A DNA stretch of 19,678 nt, from NCBI GenBank assembly GCA_037439705.1, contig JBBIVP010000016.1, forward strand, positions 1 through 19,678. The letters are read 5' to 3'. The stretch is from JBBIVP01 sp037439705 [NCBI: bacterium] (lineage in GTDB: Bacteria; JBBIVP01). Below, in pieces: positions 10,933 to 19,678 of the stretch (positions within the stretch are counted from its first letter, which is position 1; each line of letters opens with the position of its first letter). The translations under genes were made by a program, and so were the position numbers. The notes under the pieces are model-generated. The model saw only the letters and a list, made by a program, of their open reading frames with translations, did no database searches and was not told the origin of the DNA.

Positions 10933-11886
10933 ATGATTTTAGAAAAACTGAACAATTGTAGAACTATTTTATTTATTTTTTTATTCCTTTTTTCAATAAG
11001 AGGGTGGGCAGGGATTACAGCTTCCATTGATGATGACCCTTCAAAGGGGAACAAAGACGCTCCTGTGATTCTCCTCATGTTCAGCGATTTTGAATGTCCG
11101 TTCTGCAGAAAATTTGAACTGACAACATTTAAAGAGATAGAGAAAAACTACATTGATGAAGGACTTGTGTTTTTCGTCTTTCGCGATTTTCCGATTCTAT
11201 TTCATCCGTTTGCAAGGGAAGCAGCAAAGGCTGCAAACTGCGCGGGAAAGGAGGGAAAATACTGGGAAATGCACGAACTCCTTGTTTCGGGAGAGATTAA
11301 TCCTCCTGCCATAAGGGAACACGCAAAAACTCTTGGATTGAGTGAAGAAAAATTTGATAAATGTATGGAGGACGAAGAAACAAATGCGGAGATAGAAAAG
11401 GATATGAGGGATGCAAGGGAATACGGGATAAAGGGAACACCGTTTTTTATTATTGGTCAGAACACGGGTGAAGAAACTTTTGAAGGGGAAACAATAACTG
11501 GCGCACAGCCCTATGAGACATTCAAAGCCACAATTGAAAAATACCTGAGGCTACAAAGGATATATTTTTCTACCAACGACTACTCCATTTCAGAATCCGC
11601 AAAGGAAATTATTAACGGACATGTGGAATGGTTGAAGAAACATCCTGCTTTTAAAATCATAATTGAAGGACATACGGATGAAAGGGGAGATGCGGAATAT
11701 AACAGGGTACTGGGAAGAAAAAGAGCGGAAAGTGCAAAAAAACTTCTTCTTGAACTTGGGATTGAGGAAGGAAGGTTAGAGGTTGTAAGCAAGGGAGAGG
11801 ATGAACCCCTTGAGACTGGTCACGATGAGACTTCATGGTCAAAAAACAGAAGGATTGAATTTGTGATAAAGAGAATAAGTTATTAG
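10933..11886 (+). CDS. DsbA-like thioredoxin fused to a Pal/OmpA peptidoglycan-binding domain
   Basis: 317-aa exported protein with three parts. Residues 1-27 are a signal peptide (basic start, hydrophobic ILFIFLFLFSI, likely cleavage after GWAG) without a lipobox cysteine. Residues about 30-205 are a DsbA/thioredoxin-like fold with active site C55-P-F-C58 in FSDFECPFCRKFE and the cis-Pro loop GTP at 168-170; C103 and C144 may form a structural disulfide. Residues about 206-315 are an OmpA-like domain close to Pal: IIIEGHTDERGDAEYN, then RAESAKKLL and WSKNRRIEFVI. Asp249 and Arg264, 15 residues apart, match the pair that binds meso-diaminopimelate in OmpA/Pal. The expected role is a thiol oxidoreductase or chaperone tethered to the cell wall in the periplasm. 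It stands alone between divergent and convergent neighbours. No DsbB or Tol genes are in view. The ATG at 10933 is the only start that keeps the signal peptide, but it lacks a clear ribosome-binding site. Confidence 0.9.
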   Translation: MILEKLNNCRTILFIFLFLFSIRGWAGITASIDDDPSKGNKDAPVILLMFSDFECPFCRKFELTTFKEIEKNYIDEGLVFFVFRDFPILFHPFAREAAKAANCAGKEGKYWEMHELLVSGEINPPAIREHAKTLGLSEEKFDKCMEDEETNAEIEKDMRDAREYGIKGTPFFIIGQNTGEETFEGETITGAQPYETFKATIEKYLRLQRIYFSTNDYSISESAKEIINGHVEWLKKHPAFKIIIEGHTDERGDAEYNRVLGRKRAESAKKLLLELGIEEGRLEVVSKGEDEPLETGHDETSWSKNRRIEFVIKRISY

Positions 11887-11889
11887 AAC

Positions 11890-11904
11890 GTTTATTTATT
11901 AAAC
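11890..11904. terminator. short AT-rich inverted repeat between convergent gene ends (weak)
   Basis: GTTTA, a 5-nt loop, then TAAAC forms a small perfect inverted repeat between the stop of the DsbA-Pal gene (11886) and the stop of the activase frame (11899-11901). With only 5 bp, mostly A-T, it is at best a weak bidirectional terminator. Nothing better is visible in the 12-nt gap. Confidence 0.2.
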
Positions 11905-12783
11905 AACATTTATTCCTTCCTGCCTGAGAATATCTGATAGAAACGAAATTTTTTCTTGAGATATCGGTTGATGGTTGGAATAAGGATATGAAATTCCAAA
12001 AATTTCTTGTTTTGTTTTTGCAAGGCGATGAAAGGGTAGAATGCGAACGGAAACAGGTTTCTTCAGGTTTTTTAGCCATCTGGCAATTAAAAGAATATCT
12101 TCTTCCCTATCGTTGAATTCAGGTATTACTGTAATTCTTATTTCCATGGGAATTTCCTTTGAAGAGAGGGTGAGGAGATTCTTTAGAATTATGGAATTGT
12201 CTTTTCCTATAACTTTTTTTAACTTTTCAGAATCCACATGCTTTAAATCAAAAAGAATGAGGTCAAAATTTTCTGCGATTGGGATTTTTTCTTCGGAAAA
12301 GAAGCCCGATGTTTCCACTGCTGTGTGAACCTTATTTTTTTTCAGAAGAATGAGTCATTCGTAAAGGAAATCCGCCTGAAAAAATGGCTCACCTCCCGAA
12401 AAGGTAACTCCTCCACCTGTTCCCCTGAAAAAATCCTCATCCTTCAAAACCTCTTTTACAAGCTCTTCCGCATCTATATCCACTCCCACTAATCTTCTTG
12501 CTTTAGATGGACATACTTTTACACACATCCCGCATGCCCTGCATCCATTCCTCCATGCATAAGGAATTTCAAAATCCCATTCTCTCGGGCAAACCCTTTT
12601 GCATTCTTTACAGCCTATGCATTTTTTTAAATCATACGCAATTAAGGGTTCAGAGTTTTTCCCCTCCGGGTTATGACACCAGGGACATTTGAGAAGACAG
12701 CCTTTAAGGAAAATCACTGTTCTCAATCCGGGGCCATCGTCCACACATCCTCTTGAGATGTCAAATATTCTTCCCTTTTTCAT
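11899..12783 (-). pseudogene. glycyl radical enzyme activating enzyme (PflA-like radical SAM), interrupted by one in-frame TGA
   Basis: Activases of this family use SAM and a 4Fe-4S cluster to place the glycyl radical on their partner enzyme. The frame has 294 sense-or-TGA codons plus a final TAA, a normal length for the two-ferredoxin subclass. Residues 1-142 carry the radical-SAM triad C29-x3-C33-x2-C36 (GCLLKCPWCHNP), two ferredoxin clusters (C55, C58, C61, C65 and C81, C84, C87, C91) and VTFSGGEPFFQADFLYE. Codon 143 is TGA (12357-12355). The same frame then continues as a normal activase: LILLKKNKVHTAVETSGF, LILFDLKHVD, IRITVIPEFND and VRILPFHRLAKTK. The remainder shows no frameshift and no second stop. 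The start ATG overlaps the enzyme's stop (ATGA at 12780-12783). A GTG at 12318 could restart the second part but would leave two partial barrels. It may be a recent nonsense mutation, a sequencing error or a recoded gene; I prefer the first two. Confidence 0.85.
12355..12357 (-). other. in-frame TGA inside the activase gene
   Basis: The codon string around it encodes FLYE-[TGA]-LILLKKNKV. Relatives normally have Leu at this helix position (ELL). A TTA-to-TGA change is one base. The position is not one of the cluster cysteines, so selenocysteine is not an obvious expectation. Confidence 0.9.
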
Positions 12784-15317
12784 TCATTACTGCCGAATTC
12801 GTAGCGGGAAATGATATCCTCCTGAATGGACTTTCCAAGGTCTGTAAAATATGCGGAATAACCTGAAACCTTGACAATCAAATCCCTGTATTTTTCGGGA
12901 TTTCTCTGGGCGTCCCTGAGGGTTTCCGCTGAAACCACATTTGGTTGAATGTGCATTCCACCGAGTTCAAAGTAAGTTCTTATCATTTTTGCAAAGGTGA
13001 GTATTCCTTCTTCTGTTTTTATGAAAGATGGATGGAATCTCATGTTAAGGGCAATTCCTGATGAAATTTTCTCGGGTGGAAATTTTGCCACAGACCTCAT
13101 CGGTCCCATCGGTCCACATGAAAAATCTCCCATGTTCACAGGAGATACACCATTTGAAATTGGTTCTCCTTTCAGTCTTCCATCAGGAGTGGCACCCAGC
13201 ATAAATCCATCTATTACATGATTTCCATAAGAATAGTAGCAGACTCTGAACCTTCCTCCTCTTGCATTGCGGTATTTTTTAGAAATTTCATAAATCCAGT
13301 TCAGAACATTCTTTGCCATTTCATCAGCCTCTTCATTTCCCCTTCCAAATTTCGGGCACTCATTTATTATCTGCTGTCTCAGAATTTCATAGCCTTTGAA
13401 ATTTTTCTTCAAAATTTTTATAAACTGAGGAAGAGAAACAATTCTTTTTTCGTACGCGACCTTCTTTATGGCGAGAAGGCTATCAACGAGGGTTGCTAAA
13501 CCTCTTACATCAATGGATGTAAAATCATATCTCGCTCCACCTTCTGTAATATCCATTGCTTTCTCAATGCAGTCATCCATAAGAGCGGAGACATAGGGTG
13601 CAGGTAAAATTTCTCTGTATGCCCTATCCTTTCCTTCTGTGGCTTCAATTAGAATTTTTATCTGATGCTCAAGTTGCTTTTTAAAGGCTGAGATAAAATC
13701 CTCAAATGTTTTAAAATGAGCAGGGTCTCCACAATCAATGCCTTCTTTCTGTCCTATAAACGGAGGGGGTTCTTTTCCACTCGTGAGGGTCTGTATGAGG
13801 ACAACCGGGAGGACTAATTCATGCCCTCCAACGCATCCATGGGTATTTGATTGTCCTGATGTTTCAATGCATCCCACTATACAGTAATCCCTTGCATCTT
13901 CAATGCTCAAACCGTCTGCCAGAAGTCCTTCTATTATTTCTTCATCGTTATAAAAGGCTATTCCGTTGGCTTTTTTAAACACTTCACATGCCCGTTTCAG
14001 GAAATCAAAGGGAGTCTTTTTTGAAATCCTAACTGCCAGTTGATTTACCGCACCTCCCATTTCCTCGTATGCTTCAAGAATCAAATAAGAGAGTTCATTC
14101 GTTCCATCCTCACCATCTTTTCTCAATCCGCCTATTGTAACAACATGCTGGCTGTTTCCGAGAACTGCGTTTGTTTCCATTCCAACCTCAGGAATGGGCT
14201 CCACATTTGATTCCAGTTTTATAAAGAATTCCTGAATGAGGGCTTTCTCTTTTTCTCTTGTGATTTTTCCATTCTTAATATCCTCAATATAAAACGGATA
14301 GAGAAATTGATCTATTCTTCCGGGTGCAAAAACTTCGTGTGTTCCATACTGGATTTCTCCTACTAAATGGGTGAGCCATGCGGATTGCAGAGCCTCATGG
14401 AATGTTCTGGGTCTATATCTCGGGACATGTCTGCAGTGCTTTGCTATAAGAAGAAGCCTGTTTTTTTCTTCTTCGTCTTTTGATGAAGAAGCCATTTTTT
14501 CTGCAAGTTCCGCAAACCTTTCAGAATACTTTATGGCGGATTCAAGGCTTATGATAACCGCTTTTAGAAAGTTCTTCTTTTTTTCGTTATTCGGTTCTTC
14601 TATTTCTAATTTTTTGAGCCTTTCCTTTGCTTTGTTTATTATTCCCTCCATTCCGCTTTCAATTACTTTGTTCACTCCGAGGCTTAAATGTCCCTGAACA
14701 TCAAAACAGAAAACCGCTGGAGATGGATTGTTACAGGCGAGTTCGTATCTTAATCTGTTGAGGGTTTTGAGCCTTCTTAAGGTGAGAGGTGCTTTTCTGT
14801 TTGCCCCGGCAATTTTTCTTATATTTTCCCTCCCCACATATCTGATAAATTTAATCATTTTAATAAGTCTCTTTAAAAATCCCTCTTTTCTGTCAATAAG
14901 TCCCTTTCTTTCCCATTCTCTTGCTTTATAATCTCTCAAAGTCTTTCCATCCCAGTATGGAAGAATTACATCCCAGAAAAGTCTTTTTTCATGTTCTTCT
15001 ATTAAGAACGGTCTTTGTTTCATATGAAGGATATCCATTTCCATTTGGAGGGTTCTTAAAAAGTCACCTCTTTCCACAGATAGTGGACCGGCAAGGAATT
15101 TTTCTGTTTTACTGCCTGCTATGTATTCATCGGGATAGATGAAGATTTTCTGGTTTTCAAGGGTTTTTTTAAGAGCGAGGGCATTTCTTATGGCGGGATC
15201 CATTCCTTCTGTTTCTTTATATGCCTCTGTGAAATAATATGCCCTTGCCATACAGATTTCATAGGGTGAGGTGAGCAATTTTCTTTTCATTCTCGCAATT
15301 CTTTCATCAAGAGCCAT
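12780..15317 (-). CDS. glycyl radical enzyme of the pyruvate formate-lyase-like family, substrate unassigned
   Basis: 845-aa enzyme if the ATG at 15317 is used. The active-site loop has catalytic Cys483 and Glu485 in DARDYCIVGCIETSGQSN. GCxE is the pattern of the dehydratase, C-N lyase and decarboxylase branches; true pyruvate formate-lyase has two adjacent cysteines. The glycyl radical site is Gly819 in VKVSGYSAYFTDLGKSIQED near the C-terminus. Other family features are APGRIDQFLYPFY and NGIAFYNDEEIIEGL. The stretch after the active site (TSGQSNTHGCVGGHELVLP) differs from the GCVEP-type loop I know from glycerol dehydratase and choline TMA-lyase, so I do not assign a substrate. I prefer ATG 15317, which is 1 nt after the TPR gene stop and gives the usual RIARMKRKLL opening; TTG at 15338 would add 7 residues. 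No microcompartment shell protein, aldehyde dehydrogenase or transporter is seen nearby. The activase follows with an ATGA overlap. Confidence 0.9.
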   Translation of the reverse strand: MALDERIARMKRKLLTSPYEICMARAYYFTEAYKETEGMDPAIRNALALKKTLENQKIFIYPDEYIAGSKTEKFLAGPLSVERGDFLRTLQMEMDILHMKQRPFLIEEHEKRLFWDVILPYWDGKTLRDYKAREWERKGLIDRKEGFLKRLIKMIKFIRYVGRENIRKIAGANRKAPLTLRRLKTLNRLRYELACNNPSPAVFCFDVQGHLSLGVNKVIESGMEGIINKAKERLKKLEIEEPNNEKKKNFLKAVIISLESAIKYSERFAELAEKMASSSKDEEEKNRLLLIAKHCRHVPRYRPRTFHEALQSAWLTHLVGEIQYGTHEVFAPGRIDQFLYPFYIEDIKNGKITREKEKALIQEFFIKLESNVEPIPEVGMETNAVLGNSQHVVTIGGLRKDGEDGTNELSYLILEAYEEMGGAVNQLAVRISKKTPFDFLKRACEVFKKANGIAFYNDEEIIEGLLADGLSIEDARDYCIVGCIETSGQSNTHGCVGGHELVLPVVLIQTLTSGKEPPPFIGQKEGIDCGDPAHFKTFEDFISAFKKQLEHQIKILIEATEGKDRAYREILPAPYVSALMDDCIEKAMDITEGGARYDFTSIDVRGLATLVDSLLAIKKVAYEKRIVSLPQFIKILKKNFKGYEILRQQIINECPKFGRGNEEADEMAKNVLNWIYEISKKYRNARGGRFRVCYYSYGNHVIDGFMLGATPDGRLKGEPISNGVSPVNMGDFSCGPMGPMRSVAKFPPEKISSGIALNMRFHPSFIKTEEGILTFAKMIRTYFELGGMHIQPNVVSAETLRDAQRNPEKYRDLIVKVSGYSAYFTDLGKSIQEDIISRYEFGSNE

Positions 15318-15318
15318 C

Positions 15319-18300
15319 TCAAACCACCGATAATCCAAATTTTTCTCTCAGCAAGAAATAAGCATCTGATGAATAAAATTTTAAAAGGTCTGAAATGGTT
15401 TCATGCTTTTCCACAAATTCCTTCATTTTTTCCTTTGCCTGAGGAAAGTCTTCCTTAAGTAGAAGTGCTTCTCCCTTTATAGCAGAATCCAGTTTCGGAC
15501 ATGCAAGGAGTGCAACCCTTCCTGCGCTCAATCTGGCTCCAAGGATGTGTCTCTTAAATAACTTCGTGTCAGGCAACTCTTTTAATTCTCCAAGAATTTC
15601 TCCCACCTTTTTGATAATCGTTCCTTTTTTGAAAAGTGGCAGTGCCTTTGAGACCAGTTTTGGGTCAACTGCATCCTTATGTTTGAAATCAGGATTTGCA
15701 AGCATGATAAATCCAAGAAATATGTAATAGGATTTATCGTCGGAAAGGATGTTTGTGAAGGAATATCCCCTTCTGGAAAGTTCAAGCAATTTCGTTCCAA
15801 CAAATTTTAATGTATGAGAATCCAGTGAGCGTGCGACCTTGGAGCCTATCACAAGCGAATTAGGAGACGGGCTTAGTATCTCTTCACCTTTTAATGGGGA
15901 GATGTAAAGCTGAATTTCTTTCAATCCCATAAAACTTCCGATTTCTTCAATTGGTTTCAAAAAAGAATGACCGCTCTTTGGCGAGATCAGAGCATCTTTT
16001 GAAGTACCGAGGGAGAGCGTATCAATTCCTGCAATGGAAATAAAAAATTCACCCGCTACAGTGAAGAAATCTCTTAGTTGAGGGATTTCGTAAGGATGAT
16101 ATAGTTTTTCCCTGTCCTCATCTCCCATGATGCCCGAAGGTAATTTGCCCGCCTTTTCTTTTGAAGCCTCGTAGATGATTTTTTCCACCTTGCTGTCCAT
16201 TTCTCCGAGAAGGTTAAGAATATTGACAATACAGAAAGCGCGGTCGGGCATGTTATTTTTTTCATAATAATAAGCGAGGAAATGCAAGATGTTGAGGTTT
16301 GTGGGACGAAAAAGCTGTACCTTCTTTGATTCTTCGAGCGCTTCTTTTTCTCTCTTTAACTTTATCAAAAGTTCAGCGAGATTTTCCCTTGCTTCCAGAT
16401 AGGAAGGTTCAATGGATAATGTACCCTTGAAAAATTCAACAGCCTTTTCTTCGTTTTTTATTTTATCCCTTGAAATTTCTCCCAATTCAACAAGAAGGTC
16501 GGATGCTTTCTTTCTGTCCGTTTTTTTGAGCCTTTCTACAATTTCCGTTCCGACCTGTACTGAAAATTCCCATTCAGAAAGTTTTTTATGAACATCATAG
16601 AGAAGAATCAGCACAGCAAGGTTTTCTTTGTCCATATCCTTTAATGTTTTCAGGATGTCCCTTGCCCACTCGTTTTTACCCTCATCATAAAAAACCTTTG
16701 CACATTCAAAGAGAAGGTCTTTTCTTTCAGGTGGTATTCGTGCTAAAGACTTATCAATGACTGCCTTTATGCCTTCAACATTTTTAACCTTTAACCTCAA
16801 CTGAAGGAGGTCAAGAGTTATTGATGAATCTTCGGGATTGAGTTCAAAGGCAGATGAAAATGCTTTATGAGCCATTTCATGGTCGTTTATCTTTTCAAGA
16901 TATATTTTTCCCATTTTGTGATATTTCTTGGCTTTTTCCTTATCTTCTAAATAGTTCAGTTCAAGTTTTAAAACCTCGGTCAATTCAGCATAATTTTCCT
17001 CTTCCTCAAGAATTCTTTCTATCTCAAGAAGTGGTAAAAGGTTTGCATAAGTCTCATAGGACTCCTTATAAGCAGAAATAGCCTTTTTCCTTTCTTTTAT
17101 TCCTTCATAGATTTTTCCAAGTTCCATTAAAGCCTTGGAGCCTTCTTCCGGCTCTGAAATTGATGATACAAAATTTCTAATCGCAACCTCAAGAAGTTCA
17201 TATCTTCCAGTAGCTCCGGAAAGCCTTTTTAACTCATCAATGAATTTTTTATTTGTTGGGAAAAGTGAATTCAATTTTGAGTAAATCTCCATTGCACCAT
17301 GAGGATTTGAAAGGTTTTTCTCAAGAACATCCGCACATTCCTTGAGGATGCTTTCTTTTTTTTCAATCTCCTCTATTTCTGCTATTTTTTTCAGTTCCTC
17401 AACGTATTCGCTCCACCTCCGGGAGTTTTTAAGCATCTCAACTCTCATATATCTTGGATAAAGGGAATCGGGATGGGCTCCTATAAAGAAGTCAAGCCAC
17501 CATATTGCTTTTTCATAGTTTCCAAGTTTTTTCTCTGTTTCTGCTGCCAGGATGAATTCTTCATCCTCTATTCCGCCTATCTCAGCCTTTTTTGTGAAGA
17601 ATTCCCTTGTGAGATTTTCATTTTTAAAATTCAAGATTGCTTCCTCAATTCTCAATTCCTCCACAGGAGAACCCGTAAAGGAGAGAATGCACTTTTTTAA
17701 AAATTCTTCCCTTTCCCTTTCATTTAAAATGGAAAGGAAGTTGGAGGAGATAATGAGTTTGCTTTTTTCTGGAATATCAAGGTTCTTTATAAAATCTTCT
17801 ACTTTTCCTTCCGAAAATATATAAGAATAGAGAAGGAGACTATTTTTTTCCTTAAGTTTTTCAGGATTGGATAAGAATTCGTATAAATCAACTGGATAAC
17901 CCTCTATTTGTGAATAGATCTCAAGAAGTTTTTCAAAATCAAAATTCTTGATGGCTTCTTTTTCTATTTCAATCTGGGAGAATGAGTTTTTTCCCATCTT
18001 TTTTCTTGCTTCTTCAAAGCATCTCATAGCGCTGGTCTTATCATTTAGAGAATAATAAAGCCTCCCGCATTTGGTTAGAAGAAATGCAGAAAGTTCATCA
18101 TTCGTGGAAAGTGCTGAAAGAGTTTCAAGACATTTTAACCTTTCTTTTTCATCTATTTCATTTTCCTCAATCATTTCGCACACCGCCCTTTTTTTATAAT
18201 TTTCTTTCTCTAAAAATCTTTTGAGAAACTTTAAAAACTTCTCCTTCTTTCCAGCTTTTTTAAGAAGTATTGCTCCTTCAAAAAATAGTTCATCAGCCCT

Positions 18301-19678
18301 TTCCATTCCTGCTATCTCTATTTCCCTTTCCAGATAGGAAATTGCCTCTTCCATGTTCCCCTCAAGAAGGCTCATATATTTTAAGGCTTCAATTGCCGGA
18401 AGATACTCTGGAATTATATTCAGTACCTTTTTGAATTCATCCTTTGCTCCTTTTACATCTCCTAAATAATTCAGATATATAGTTCCATTTTCCCAGTGAA
18501 GACCTGCTATACTTGCTTTTTCCGAGCTCATTTCAATCAATCTATTATTAATGCTTAAAACCCTTTTCCATTCACCCCTTTTTTTATCAACCTTCTTCAT
18601 GGCTTCAAGAGCAGGGAAATAGGTTGGTGCAATTTCAAGAACCTTTTCGTATGAAAGTGATGCTTTTTCTAACTCTCCTTTTTCCAGTTCGTATATCTCC
18701 CCTATCTTCATGCTCAACAGAATTATCTCCTTCGGGTCATAGGATAACTCTATCTTCTTTTTGTAAATTCCAATTAATTCATCCCATTCCTTAAGAGATG
18801 AAAGCACATCAGGAAGTTTAAACAGTGCAAAGGGTTCAGCTGGCTCAATTTCAAGAATTTTCATCAATGCCAGTTTGGATTTCTGATATTCCCCTGCTTT
18901 TTCAAACATGATTGAGACGTTCATGAGATAAGAGAGTGCTTCTTCTTTTGTTGCCTTTTCCGATAGAGAAAGGCATAAATCTCCAGCTTTTTCATAATTT
19001 CCTGTTTTTATGTATAAATTGAGCAACCTTAGAGCTACATCCCTTTGGGGAGAAATGGAAAAGAGTTCCTCAAGCACCTCCATTGCTTTTTCATACTTTT
19101 CAGATGAAGAATACAGCTCCTCCAGTTTCTCAAGCACATGGAGTCTGTCTTCCGGTGGTAGGAGTTTTCTTTCTTCATTTAGAACATCTATCAATAATTC
19201 CCTGTCATGAGTTTCTTCTACAATTTCCTTTAACAGAAGAAAAGGAAAAACGGAACCAGGTTTGAGTGATATGGCACTTTTTATAGAAGAAATAGCCTTT
19301 TCCCTGTCCACATTCAGAAGGAGCCATGCTTTCTGAAGATAAAGAAATGCCTTCATTTCATTGTCTTTTATTTCCTCAATAATCCCGTCTACGGATTCCA
19401 GAACCATTTCCACATCATCGGTTAGGATTCCGAGCAGTTTTTTCATAACTTTAATATCAATGGTTTTGAGAGATATGTTTTTCAAAAATTCCTTTGCCCT
19501 TTCTCCGCTTTTGAGATAGATAATAGAAAAAACTGCTCCCGAAAATAAGATATAGCTTCTTTCCGGTTCCTTGAACAATTTTGCAAAATCTTCCATCATC
19601 CGAATGGCAGATTCTGGCTGTCCGAGATTCATACTTGATTTTACAGCGAAAGAAAGGACCTCTGTTGATGGAAGGTTA
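15319..19678 (-). CDS. giant TPR protein with degenerate peptidase-like C-terminal domain (5' partial)
   Basis: The frame has no stop up to the right edge, and the 15 residues before the first in-window ATG (19632) read as a continuing TPR helix, so the N-terminus lies outside. 1,452 residues are visible. Most are tandem tetratricopeptide-type helices spread along the protein, with clear units such as LEKASLSYEKVLEIAPTYFP, VKGAKDEFKKVLNIIPEYLP and EEKAVEFFKGTLSIEPSYLE. No signal peptide or membrane helix is visible in this part. The last 265 residues or so (15322 to about 16116) form a separate domain with NSLVIGSKVARSLDSHTLKF, KLLELSRRGYSF and ARLSAGRVALLAC. These line up by eye with the C-terminal domain of very large TPR proteins of myxobacteria and deltaproteobacteria. 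A scaffold or protein-interaction role is likely; the process is unknown. The stop is 1 nt before the glycyl radical enzyme start, so they probably share a transcript. Confidence 0.85.
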   Translation of the reverse strand, partial: NLPSTEVLSFAVKSSMNLGQPESAIRMMEDFAKLFKEPERSYILFSGAVFSIIYLKSGERAKEFLKNISLKTIDIKVMKKLLGILTDDVEMVLESVDGIIEEIKDNEMKAFLYLQKAWLLLNVDREKAISSIKSAISLKPGSVFPFLLLKEIVEETHDRELLIDVLNEERKLLPPEDRLHVLEKLEELYSSSEKYEKAMEVLEELFSISPQRDVALRLLNLYIKTGNYEKAGDLCLSLSEKATKEEALSYLMNVSIMFEKAGEYQKSKLALMKILEIEPAEPFALFKLPDVLSSLKEWDELIGIYKKKIELSYDPKEIILLSMKIGEIYELEKGELEKASLSYEKVLEIAPTYFPALEAMKKVDKKRGEWKRVLSINNRLIEMSSEKASIAGLHWENGTIYLNYLGDVKGAKDEFKKVLNIIPEYLPAIEALKYMSLLEGNMEEAISYLEREIEIAGMERADELFFEGAILLKKAGKKEKFLKFLKRFLEKENYKKRAVCEMIEENEIDEKERLKCLETLSALSTNDELSAFLLTKCGRLYYSLNDKTSAMRCFEEARKKMGKNSFSQIEIEKEAIKNFDFEKLLEIYSQIEGYPVDLYEFLSNPEKLKEKNSLLLYSYIFSEGKVEDFIKNLDIPEKSKLIISSNFLSILNEREREEFLKKCILSFTGSPVEELRIEEAILNFKNENLTREFFTKKAEIGGIEDEEFILAAETEKKLGNYEKAIWWLDFFIGAHPDSLYPRYMRVEMLKNSRRWSEYVEELKKIAEIEEIEKKESILKECADVLEKNLSNPHGAMEIYSKLNSLFPTNKKFIDELKRLSGATGRYELLEVAIRNFVSSISEPEEGSKALMELGKIYEGIKERKKAISAYKESYETYANLLPLLEIERILEEEENYAELTEVLKLELNYLEDKEKAKKYHKMGKIYLEKINDHEMAHKAFSSAFELNPEDSSITLDLLQLRLKVKNVEGIKAVIDKSLARIPPERKDLLFECAKVFYDEGKNEWARDILKTLKDMDKENLAVLILLYDVHKKLSEWEFSVQVGTEIVERLKKTDRKKASDLLVELGEISRDKIKNEEKAVEFFKGTLSIEPSYLEARENLAELLIKLKREKEALEESKKVQLFRPTNLNILHFLAYYYEKNNMPDRAFCIVNILNLLGEMDSKVEKIIYEASKEKAGKLPSGIMGDEDREKLYHPYEIPQLRDFFTVAGEFFISIAGIDTLSLGTSKDALISPKSGHSFLKPIEEIGSFMGLKEIQLYISPLKGEEILSPSPNSLVIGSKVARSLDSHTLKFVGTKLLELSRRGYSFTNILSDDKSYYIFLGFIMLANPDFKHKDAVDPKLVSKALPLFKKGTIIKKVGEILGELKELPDTKLFKRHILGARLSAGRVALLACPKLDSAIKGEALLLKEDFPQAKEKMKEFVEKHETISDLLKFYSSDAYFLLREKFGLSVV

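What the first reader, a model, noticed from the sequence alone, without database searches (positions are those of the whole stretch)
11899..12783. Single in-frame TGA in an otherwise intact glycyl radical activase
Codon 143 of the activase is TGA, while the sequence on both sides continues the radical-SAM activase in the same frame with all expected motifs and no other damage. TGA is the normal stop for at least seven other genes here, so general reassignment is excluded. The remaining options are a very recent nonsense mutation (Leu TTA to TGA), a sequencing or assembly error, programmed readthrough, or selenocysteine. If real and not read through, the partner enzyme would need an activase encoded elsewhere. 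If read through, activase amount could be tuned by recoding.
Basis: partly seen in the sequence, partly recalled or inferred. Interest (0 to 1): 0.68.

Follow-up and report, generated by a model that had tools for sequence, protein, structure and literature searches.

The report
Lone stop codon in activase gene
A single stop codon sits in the middle of an otherwise normal bacterial gene for an enzyme activator; it most likely is a recent chance mutation or a sequencing slip, with no sign found that the cell reads it as anything special.

Summary
On the minus strand (12783..11899) an activase of glycyl radical enzymes has TGA as codon 143 (12355-12357) and is otherwise open to its TAA. Read through, it scores 298 bits against TIGR02494 (cut-off 174) and keeps the three-cysteine motif, both ferredoxin clusters and 11 of 13 conserved columns behind the stop.

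Selenocysteine is not supported. The column is a variable, mostly hydrophobic position (37 distinct relatives: L19 F7 I3 V3 A2 C2 T1). The best hairpin behind this TGA is -3.6 kcal/mol with a 3-bp upper stem; six selenocysteine-type TGAs of formate dehydrogenases give -9.7 to -22.2. None of 62 activase matches listed has an internal stop. TGA ends 6 of 11 other genes here, not seven.

No clear decay is seen, so the lesion is young, an error, or read through. No reads and no genome of this organism are held, so mutation and base-call error cannot be separated. I favour a recent nonsense mutation, then a consensus error; leaky readthrough is a small residual. Ordinary; low interest.

The parts
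11899..12783 (-). Glycyl radical enzyme activase (radical SAM, TIGR02494), interrupted by one in-frame TGA; ATG start at 12783, TAA stop at 11899-11901
12355..12357 (-). In-frame TGA, codon 143, followed by C (GAA TGA CTC)
12358..12783 (-). Residues 1-142 before the stop: C29-x3-C33-x2-C36 radical-SAM motif, two ferredoxin-type clusters (C55/C58/C61/C65 and C81/C84/C87/C91), G130-G131-E132
   Evidence: sequence; Pfam matches; conserved columns (C58 is read from the sequence, it is not among those columns)
11902..12354 (-). Residues 144-294 after the stop, still homologous; in-frame GTG at codon 156 (12316-12318) is the first candidate restart, with AAGG 11 nt upstream
12780..15338 (-). Partner glycyl radical enzyme (PFL-like), uninterrupted: GCIET cysteine motif (C490) and VSGYSA glycyl radical motif (G826); its TGA stop overlaps the activase ATG (ATGA)

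Best explanation
A recent nonsense mutation: a single base change turned codon 143 of a working glycyl radical enzyme activase into TGA, in the sequenced lineage or in the strain that dominates the assembly. Ribosomes stop there and make a 142-residue product that has the cluster-binding cysteines but lacks the second half of the radical-SAM domain, so it should not activate. The adjacent glycyl radical enzyme would then be idle or be served by another activase. Shown: the TGA, the homologous frame on both sides, no clear decay, no recoding element found. Inferred: that the base is real in cells, that it arose by one change, and the loss of function.
For: Only internal stop in 6429 codons of 12 genes. 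The site is a variable, mostly hydrophobic column in 37 distinct relatives, so no special residue is expected there. None of the 57 activase matches listed nor of the 5 has a stop inside, so the TGA was seen only here. The post/pre-stop identity ratio of the window averages 0.73 against 36 relatives, like the 0.73 (s.d. 0.11) of 630 pairs of relatives; 11 of 13 conserved columns behind the stop are kept: no clear decay, hence recent. About 135 of 2646 possible single changes in this gene give a stop, so nothing unusual is needed.
Against: A base-call or consensus error would look identical; no reads, no own genome and no close sister sequence are held; the nearest orthologues are 53-57% identical. 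Homology kept downstream is also what functional readthrough would leave. Hints of slight relaxation, which would make the lesion older, are weak: against the three orthologues the window's ratio is 0.74, 0.70, 0.84, theirs with each other 0.92, 0.87, 0.83; third-position GC behind the stop is 0.298, below the 0.327-0.388 of the 11 other genes and 0.373 before the stop, on 151 codons. Codon adaptation (0.718 before, 0.713 after) tells nothing, since two wrong frames of the same stretch score 0.712 and 0.715 (all).
Confidence: 0.5

Rival explanations
1. Sequencing, consensus or assembly error: the gene in the cells has a sense codon and is an ordinary intact activase next to its enzyme.
For: A lone stop in an otherwise sound operon; no clear decay; the three orthologous enzyme-activase pairs are uninterrupted. 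The window lies in no held genome and may be a metagenome record, where coverage can be low.
Against: No other internal stop in 6429 codons. No frameshift is involved: a run of eight A starts 13 nt after the TGA, but the spacing of the flanking motifs equals that of the three orthologues.
Confidence: 0.35
2. Leaky readthrough: a fraction of ribosomes insert an amino acid at UGA (for instance near-cognate tRNA-Trp) and make some full-length activase, which is needed only in catalytic amounts.
For: The TGA is followed by C, unlike the six terminal TGAs here, which are followed by G, T, T, G, A and G; that UGA-C is the leakiest context is recalled, not from a call. E. coli PFL-activase has Trp at the aligned position. 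Downstream half largely kept.
Against: No stop in any of the 62 relatives' matches listed, so no conserved signal; the local fold is no better than shuffles (z +0.45). One base of context is weak evidence.
Confidence: 0.09
3. Selenocysteine: TGA is decoded by SelB at a bSECIS element, at a residue that is Cys in orthologue L001.
For: Orthologue L001 (genome G001) has Cys (TGC) at the aligned site. All three orthologue genomes have SelB over the curated cut-off and at least one formate-dehydrogenase-family match with one in-frame TGA (in G001 and G002 these matches are below that family's cut-off).
Against: Best hairpin -3.6 kcal/mol with a 3-bp upper stem, against the published limits of at least 4 bp and -7.5 kcal/mol or lower (PMC13188914, passages seen); six control sites give -9.7 to -22.2. 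Cys at the column in only 2 of 37 relatives. Rfam gives five matches, all far under gathering score and none a SECIS family. The passages of the review that I saw name two radical SAM selenoproteins, and its main text has no occurrence of 'glycyl' or 'activating enzyme'.
Confidence: 0.02
4. Two-piece activase: termination at TGA followed by restart at GTG codon 156 gives two fragments that assemble.
For: In-frame GTG at codon 156 with AAGG 11 nt upstream; the TGA also overlaps an out-of-frame ATG (sequence).
Against: The restart would drop residues 143-155; the frame of the overlapping ATG ends after 8 codons (sequence); no match in a relative shows a stop here.
Confidence: 0.02

Closest known systems
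Glycyl radical enzyme activating proteins (NCBIfam TIGR02494, PFLE_PFLC; next best model NF043069, trans-4-hydroxy-L-proline dehydratase activase)
   Same: Full-length match when read through the TGA, 298 bits against cut-off 174; three-cysteine motif, two ferredoxin-type clusters, adjacent glycyl radical enzyme gene
   Different: One in-frame TGA at codon 143; below the cut-offs of the equivalog models listed (25 of 30 families shown), so the substrate class is unassigned
Unitary pseudogenes / nonsense alleles in bacteria (general knowledge, no call)
   Same: Single internal stop in an otherwise intact gene
   Different: No second lesion, and not confirmed by reads
Bacterial selenoproteins such as formate dehydrogenase alpha subunit
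   Same: In-frame TGA with homology on both sides
   Different: No bSECIS-type hairpin and no conserved Cys column

Membership tests
Glycyl radical enzyme activase (TIGR02494) | Profile score over curated cut-off across the whole protein | tested here: met
   298 bits vs 174.35, residues 6-289, with X at the TGA
Glycyl radical enzyme activase (TIGR02494) | CxxxCxxC motif and two ferredoxin-type clusters | tested here: met
   C29/C33/C36, C55/C58/C61/C65, C81/C84/C87/C91 (sequence; all but C58 among the conserved columns); Pfam Radical_SAM and Fer4 over cut-off
Glycyl radical enzyme activase (TIGR02494) | Single uninterrupted reading frame | tested here: not met
   TGA at codon 143
Bacterial selenoprotein | bSECIS: 4-16 bp upper stem, small loop with early G, 16-37 nt from UGA, -7.5 kcal/mol or lower | tested here: not met
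Bacterial selenoprotein | Conserved Cys in homologues at the Sec position | tested here: not met
   Cys in 2 of 37 distinct relatives; column mostly Leu/Phe
Bacterial selenoprotein | selA, selB, selC, selD in the genome | not testable with these tools
   No genome held for the window; SelB in 3 of 3 orthologue genomes
Pseudogene | Disabling change confirmed in cells, not an error | not testable with these tools
   No reads held
Pseudogene | Relaxed constraint after the lesion | tested here: inconclusive
   Ratio 0.73 equals the family's 0.73; against three orthologues slightly low, and third-position GC behind the stop 0.298 against 0.327-0.388 in other genes

The most novel reading that the evidence does not exclude
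The UGA-C is a tolerated, leaky stop: enough full-length activase is made by misreading to switch on the partner enzyme, so that activase dose is set by readthrough. (Narrower than the readthrough rival, hence the lower figure.)
Probability: 0.07. Interest if true: 0.5.

Novelty: new member of a known kind. Interest (0 to 1): 0.12.

Why it matters
As found, it matters little: one more gene with a lone nonsense codon that annotation would split in two. It does show a quick way to test a selenocysteine reading, with formate dehydrogenase TGAs of other genomes as positive controls. If it were read through, it would be a natural case of an activase limited by stop-codon leakiness.

Tried and rejected
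General UGA reassignment: rejected, TGA ends 6 of 11 other genes. Selenocysteine: rejected on hairpin, column and Rfam. Paired frameshift errors around the run of eight A: rejected, the spacing of motifs on both sides of the TGA equals that of the three orthologues. Restart at the ATG overlapping the TGA: its frame ends after 8 codons (sequence). Viral contigs: 14 stretches matched a pattern, none encodes a relative. More orthologues: the order of G033 holds 2 genomes and the class of G002 holds 3, giving no new copy. Placing the organism: the DsbA-OmpA fusion gave 0 of 148 genomes at E 1e-60, without a positive control, and the TrpB-like protein reached at best 70% identity among 247 genomes, so its phylum is unsettled. 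Local-fold z-scores did not separate the controls (-3.82 to -0.05) from the window (0.43) well, so only the hairpin criteria are used; the control sequences are visibly richer in G+C than the window, which favours their hairpins by composition alone. Codon adaptation was no use: wrong frames score the same. Papers: searches were seen as listings only; from the listing I saw passages of PMC1088965 and PMC13188914; one search on premature stops in metagenome genomes held 0 papers.

Limits of the counts: one of 38 relative rows (L011) is a truncated copy of the gene in L055, so 37 distinct genes are counted; the conserved columns still include it. The relatives were taken as stretches between stops, so that call cannot show internal stops; the statement on stops rests, where stops are read through and counted. 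Of 10 formate-dehydrogenase-family rows with one TGA, 7 were held as loci and given; 6 were recognised by the motif search and L060 was dropped.

Full report
What is there. The gene lies on the minus strand, 12783..11899. It starts with ATG, overlapping the TGA stop of the preceding glycyl radical enzyme (ATGA), and ends with TAA after 294 codons; codon 143 (12355-12357) is TGA and is the only internal stop. Twelve genes of the window were examined, 6429 codons; no other internal stop was found.

What it encodes. With X at the TGA the product matches TIGR02494, glycyl-radical enzyme activating protein, at 298 bits (cut-off 174.35) over residues 6-289, and lies below the cut-offs of the equivalog models listed (25 of 30 families were shown). 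Pfam gives Radical_SAM and Fer4 over cut-off. The partner (12780-15338) matches PFL-like and Gly_radical, keeps the GCIET and VSGYSA motifs, has glycerol dehydratase and hydroxyproline dehydratase as the best matches among solved structures, and is under the cut-offs of all 12 NCBIfam models it matches, so its substrate is unassigned.

Relatives. The one scan of genome contigs, with the partner enzyme, gave 7 loci, two of them close (69 and 65% identity). With genome searches three orthologous pairs were found, in G001, G033 and G002: 3 of 247 genomes for the enzyme at E 1e-200; for the activase 5 of 395 at 1e-65, these three being the best at 55, 57 and 53% identity. All 5 activase matches are without internal stops. 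In one search, 24 of 59 genomes had TIGR02494 matches and none of the 57 matches listed had a stop inside.

The residue at the stop. Across 37 distinct relatives held as loci the aligned residue is Leu 19, Phe 7, Ile 3, Val 3, Ala 2, Cys 2, Thr 1 (a truncated duplicate, L011, is not counted). In E. coli PFL-activase it is Trp. It is a variable, mostly hydrophobic position eleven residues behind the GGE motif, not a conserved cysteine. Five of the 37 have a codon one change from TGA (three TTA, two TGC), so the ancestral codon cannot be told.

Selenocysteine test. The three orthologue genomes have SelB over the curated cut-off and formate-dehydrogenase-family matches with one in-frame TGA, so these bacteria probably use selenocysteine and supply positive controls. 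The published bSECIS model asks for a 4-16 bp upper stem, a small loop with an early G, 16-37 nt from the UGA, and -7.5 kcal/mol or lower (PMC13188914, passages seen). Ten rows have one TGA; 7 were held as loci, 6 were recognised, and those 6 give hairpins of -9.7 to -22.2 kcal/mol; behind the window's TGA the best is -3.6 with a 3-bp upper stem. Rfam gives five matches far under gathering score, none a SECIS family, and the local fold is no better than shuffles (z +0.45). Two cautions: the window is poorer in G+C than the controls, and z-scores of the controls themselves were mostly weak (-3.82 to -0.05). Together with the column, selenocysteine is very unlikely.

Age of the lesion. Identity after the stop divided by identity before it averages 0.73 between the window and 36 relatives and 0.73 (s.d. 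0.11) among 630 pairs of relatives; against the three orthologues it is 0.74, 0.70 and 0.84, theirs with each other 0.92, 0.87 and 0.83. Behind the stop 11 of 13 conserved columns are kept. Third-position GC is 0.373 before and 0.298 after the stop, the latter below the 0.327-0.388 of the 11 other genes, on only 151 codons. Codon adaptation is the same on both sides but also in two wrong frames, so it says nothing (all). The second half is thus not clearly decayed, with faint hints the other way. That fits a recent mutation, an error, or translation through the stop, and does not choose between them.

Readthrough and restart. The TGA is followed by C, the context I recall as leakiest; the other six TGAs are followed by G, T, T, G, A and G. 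An activase acts catalytically, so low readthrough might suffice. But nothing conserved supports a signal, and one base of context is weak. A restart at GTG codon 156 would drop residues 143-155 and has AAGG 11 nt upstream, a long spacing.

Verdict. A lone nonsense codon in an otherwise intact gene: most likely a recent mutation (0.5) or an error (0.35), which only reads or close sister genomes can separate. Neither is held here. The finding is ordinary.

Noticed in passing
12780-15338: The partner glycyl radical enzyme seems to be of a rare group: 3 of 247 genomes match at E 1e-200, it is under the cut-offs of the 12 NCBIfam models it matches, and carries a GCIETSGQS motif shared with the three orthologues. 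Its substrate is unassigned.
   Followed up: partly
10933-11886: DsbA-like thioredoxin domain fused to an OmpA/Pal domain; the thioredoxin part resembles the (seleno)lipoprotein family NF041057 (106.7 bits, cut-off 190) but has Cys-Pro-Phe-Cys and no TGA. No match at 1e-60 in 148 genomes.
   Followed up: partly
15319-19632: Long tetratricopeptide-like protein (1437 aa ORF) directly upstream of the glycyl radical enzyme gene; the two ORFs overlap by 20 bases. No family search was made for it.
   Followed up: no
L056, L068, L069: In-frame TGAs in formate-dehydrogenase-family genes of the three orthologue genomes, with bSECIS-type hairpins.
   Followed up: partly
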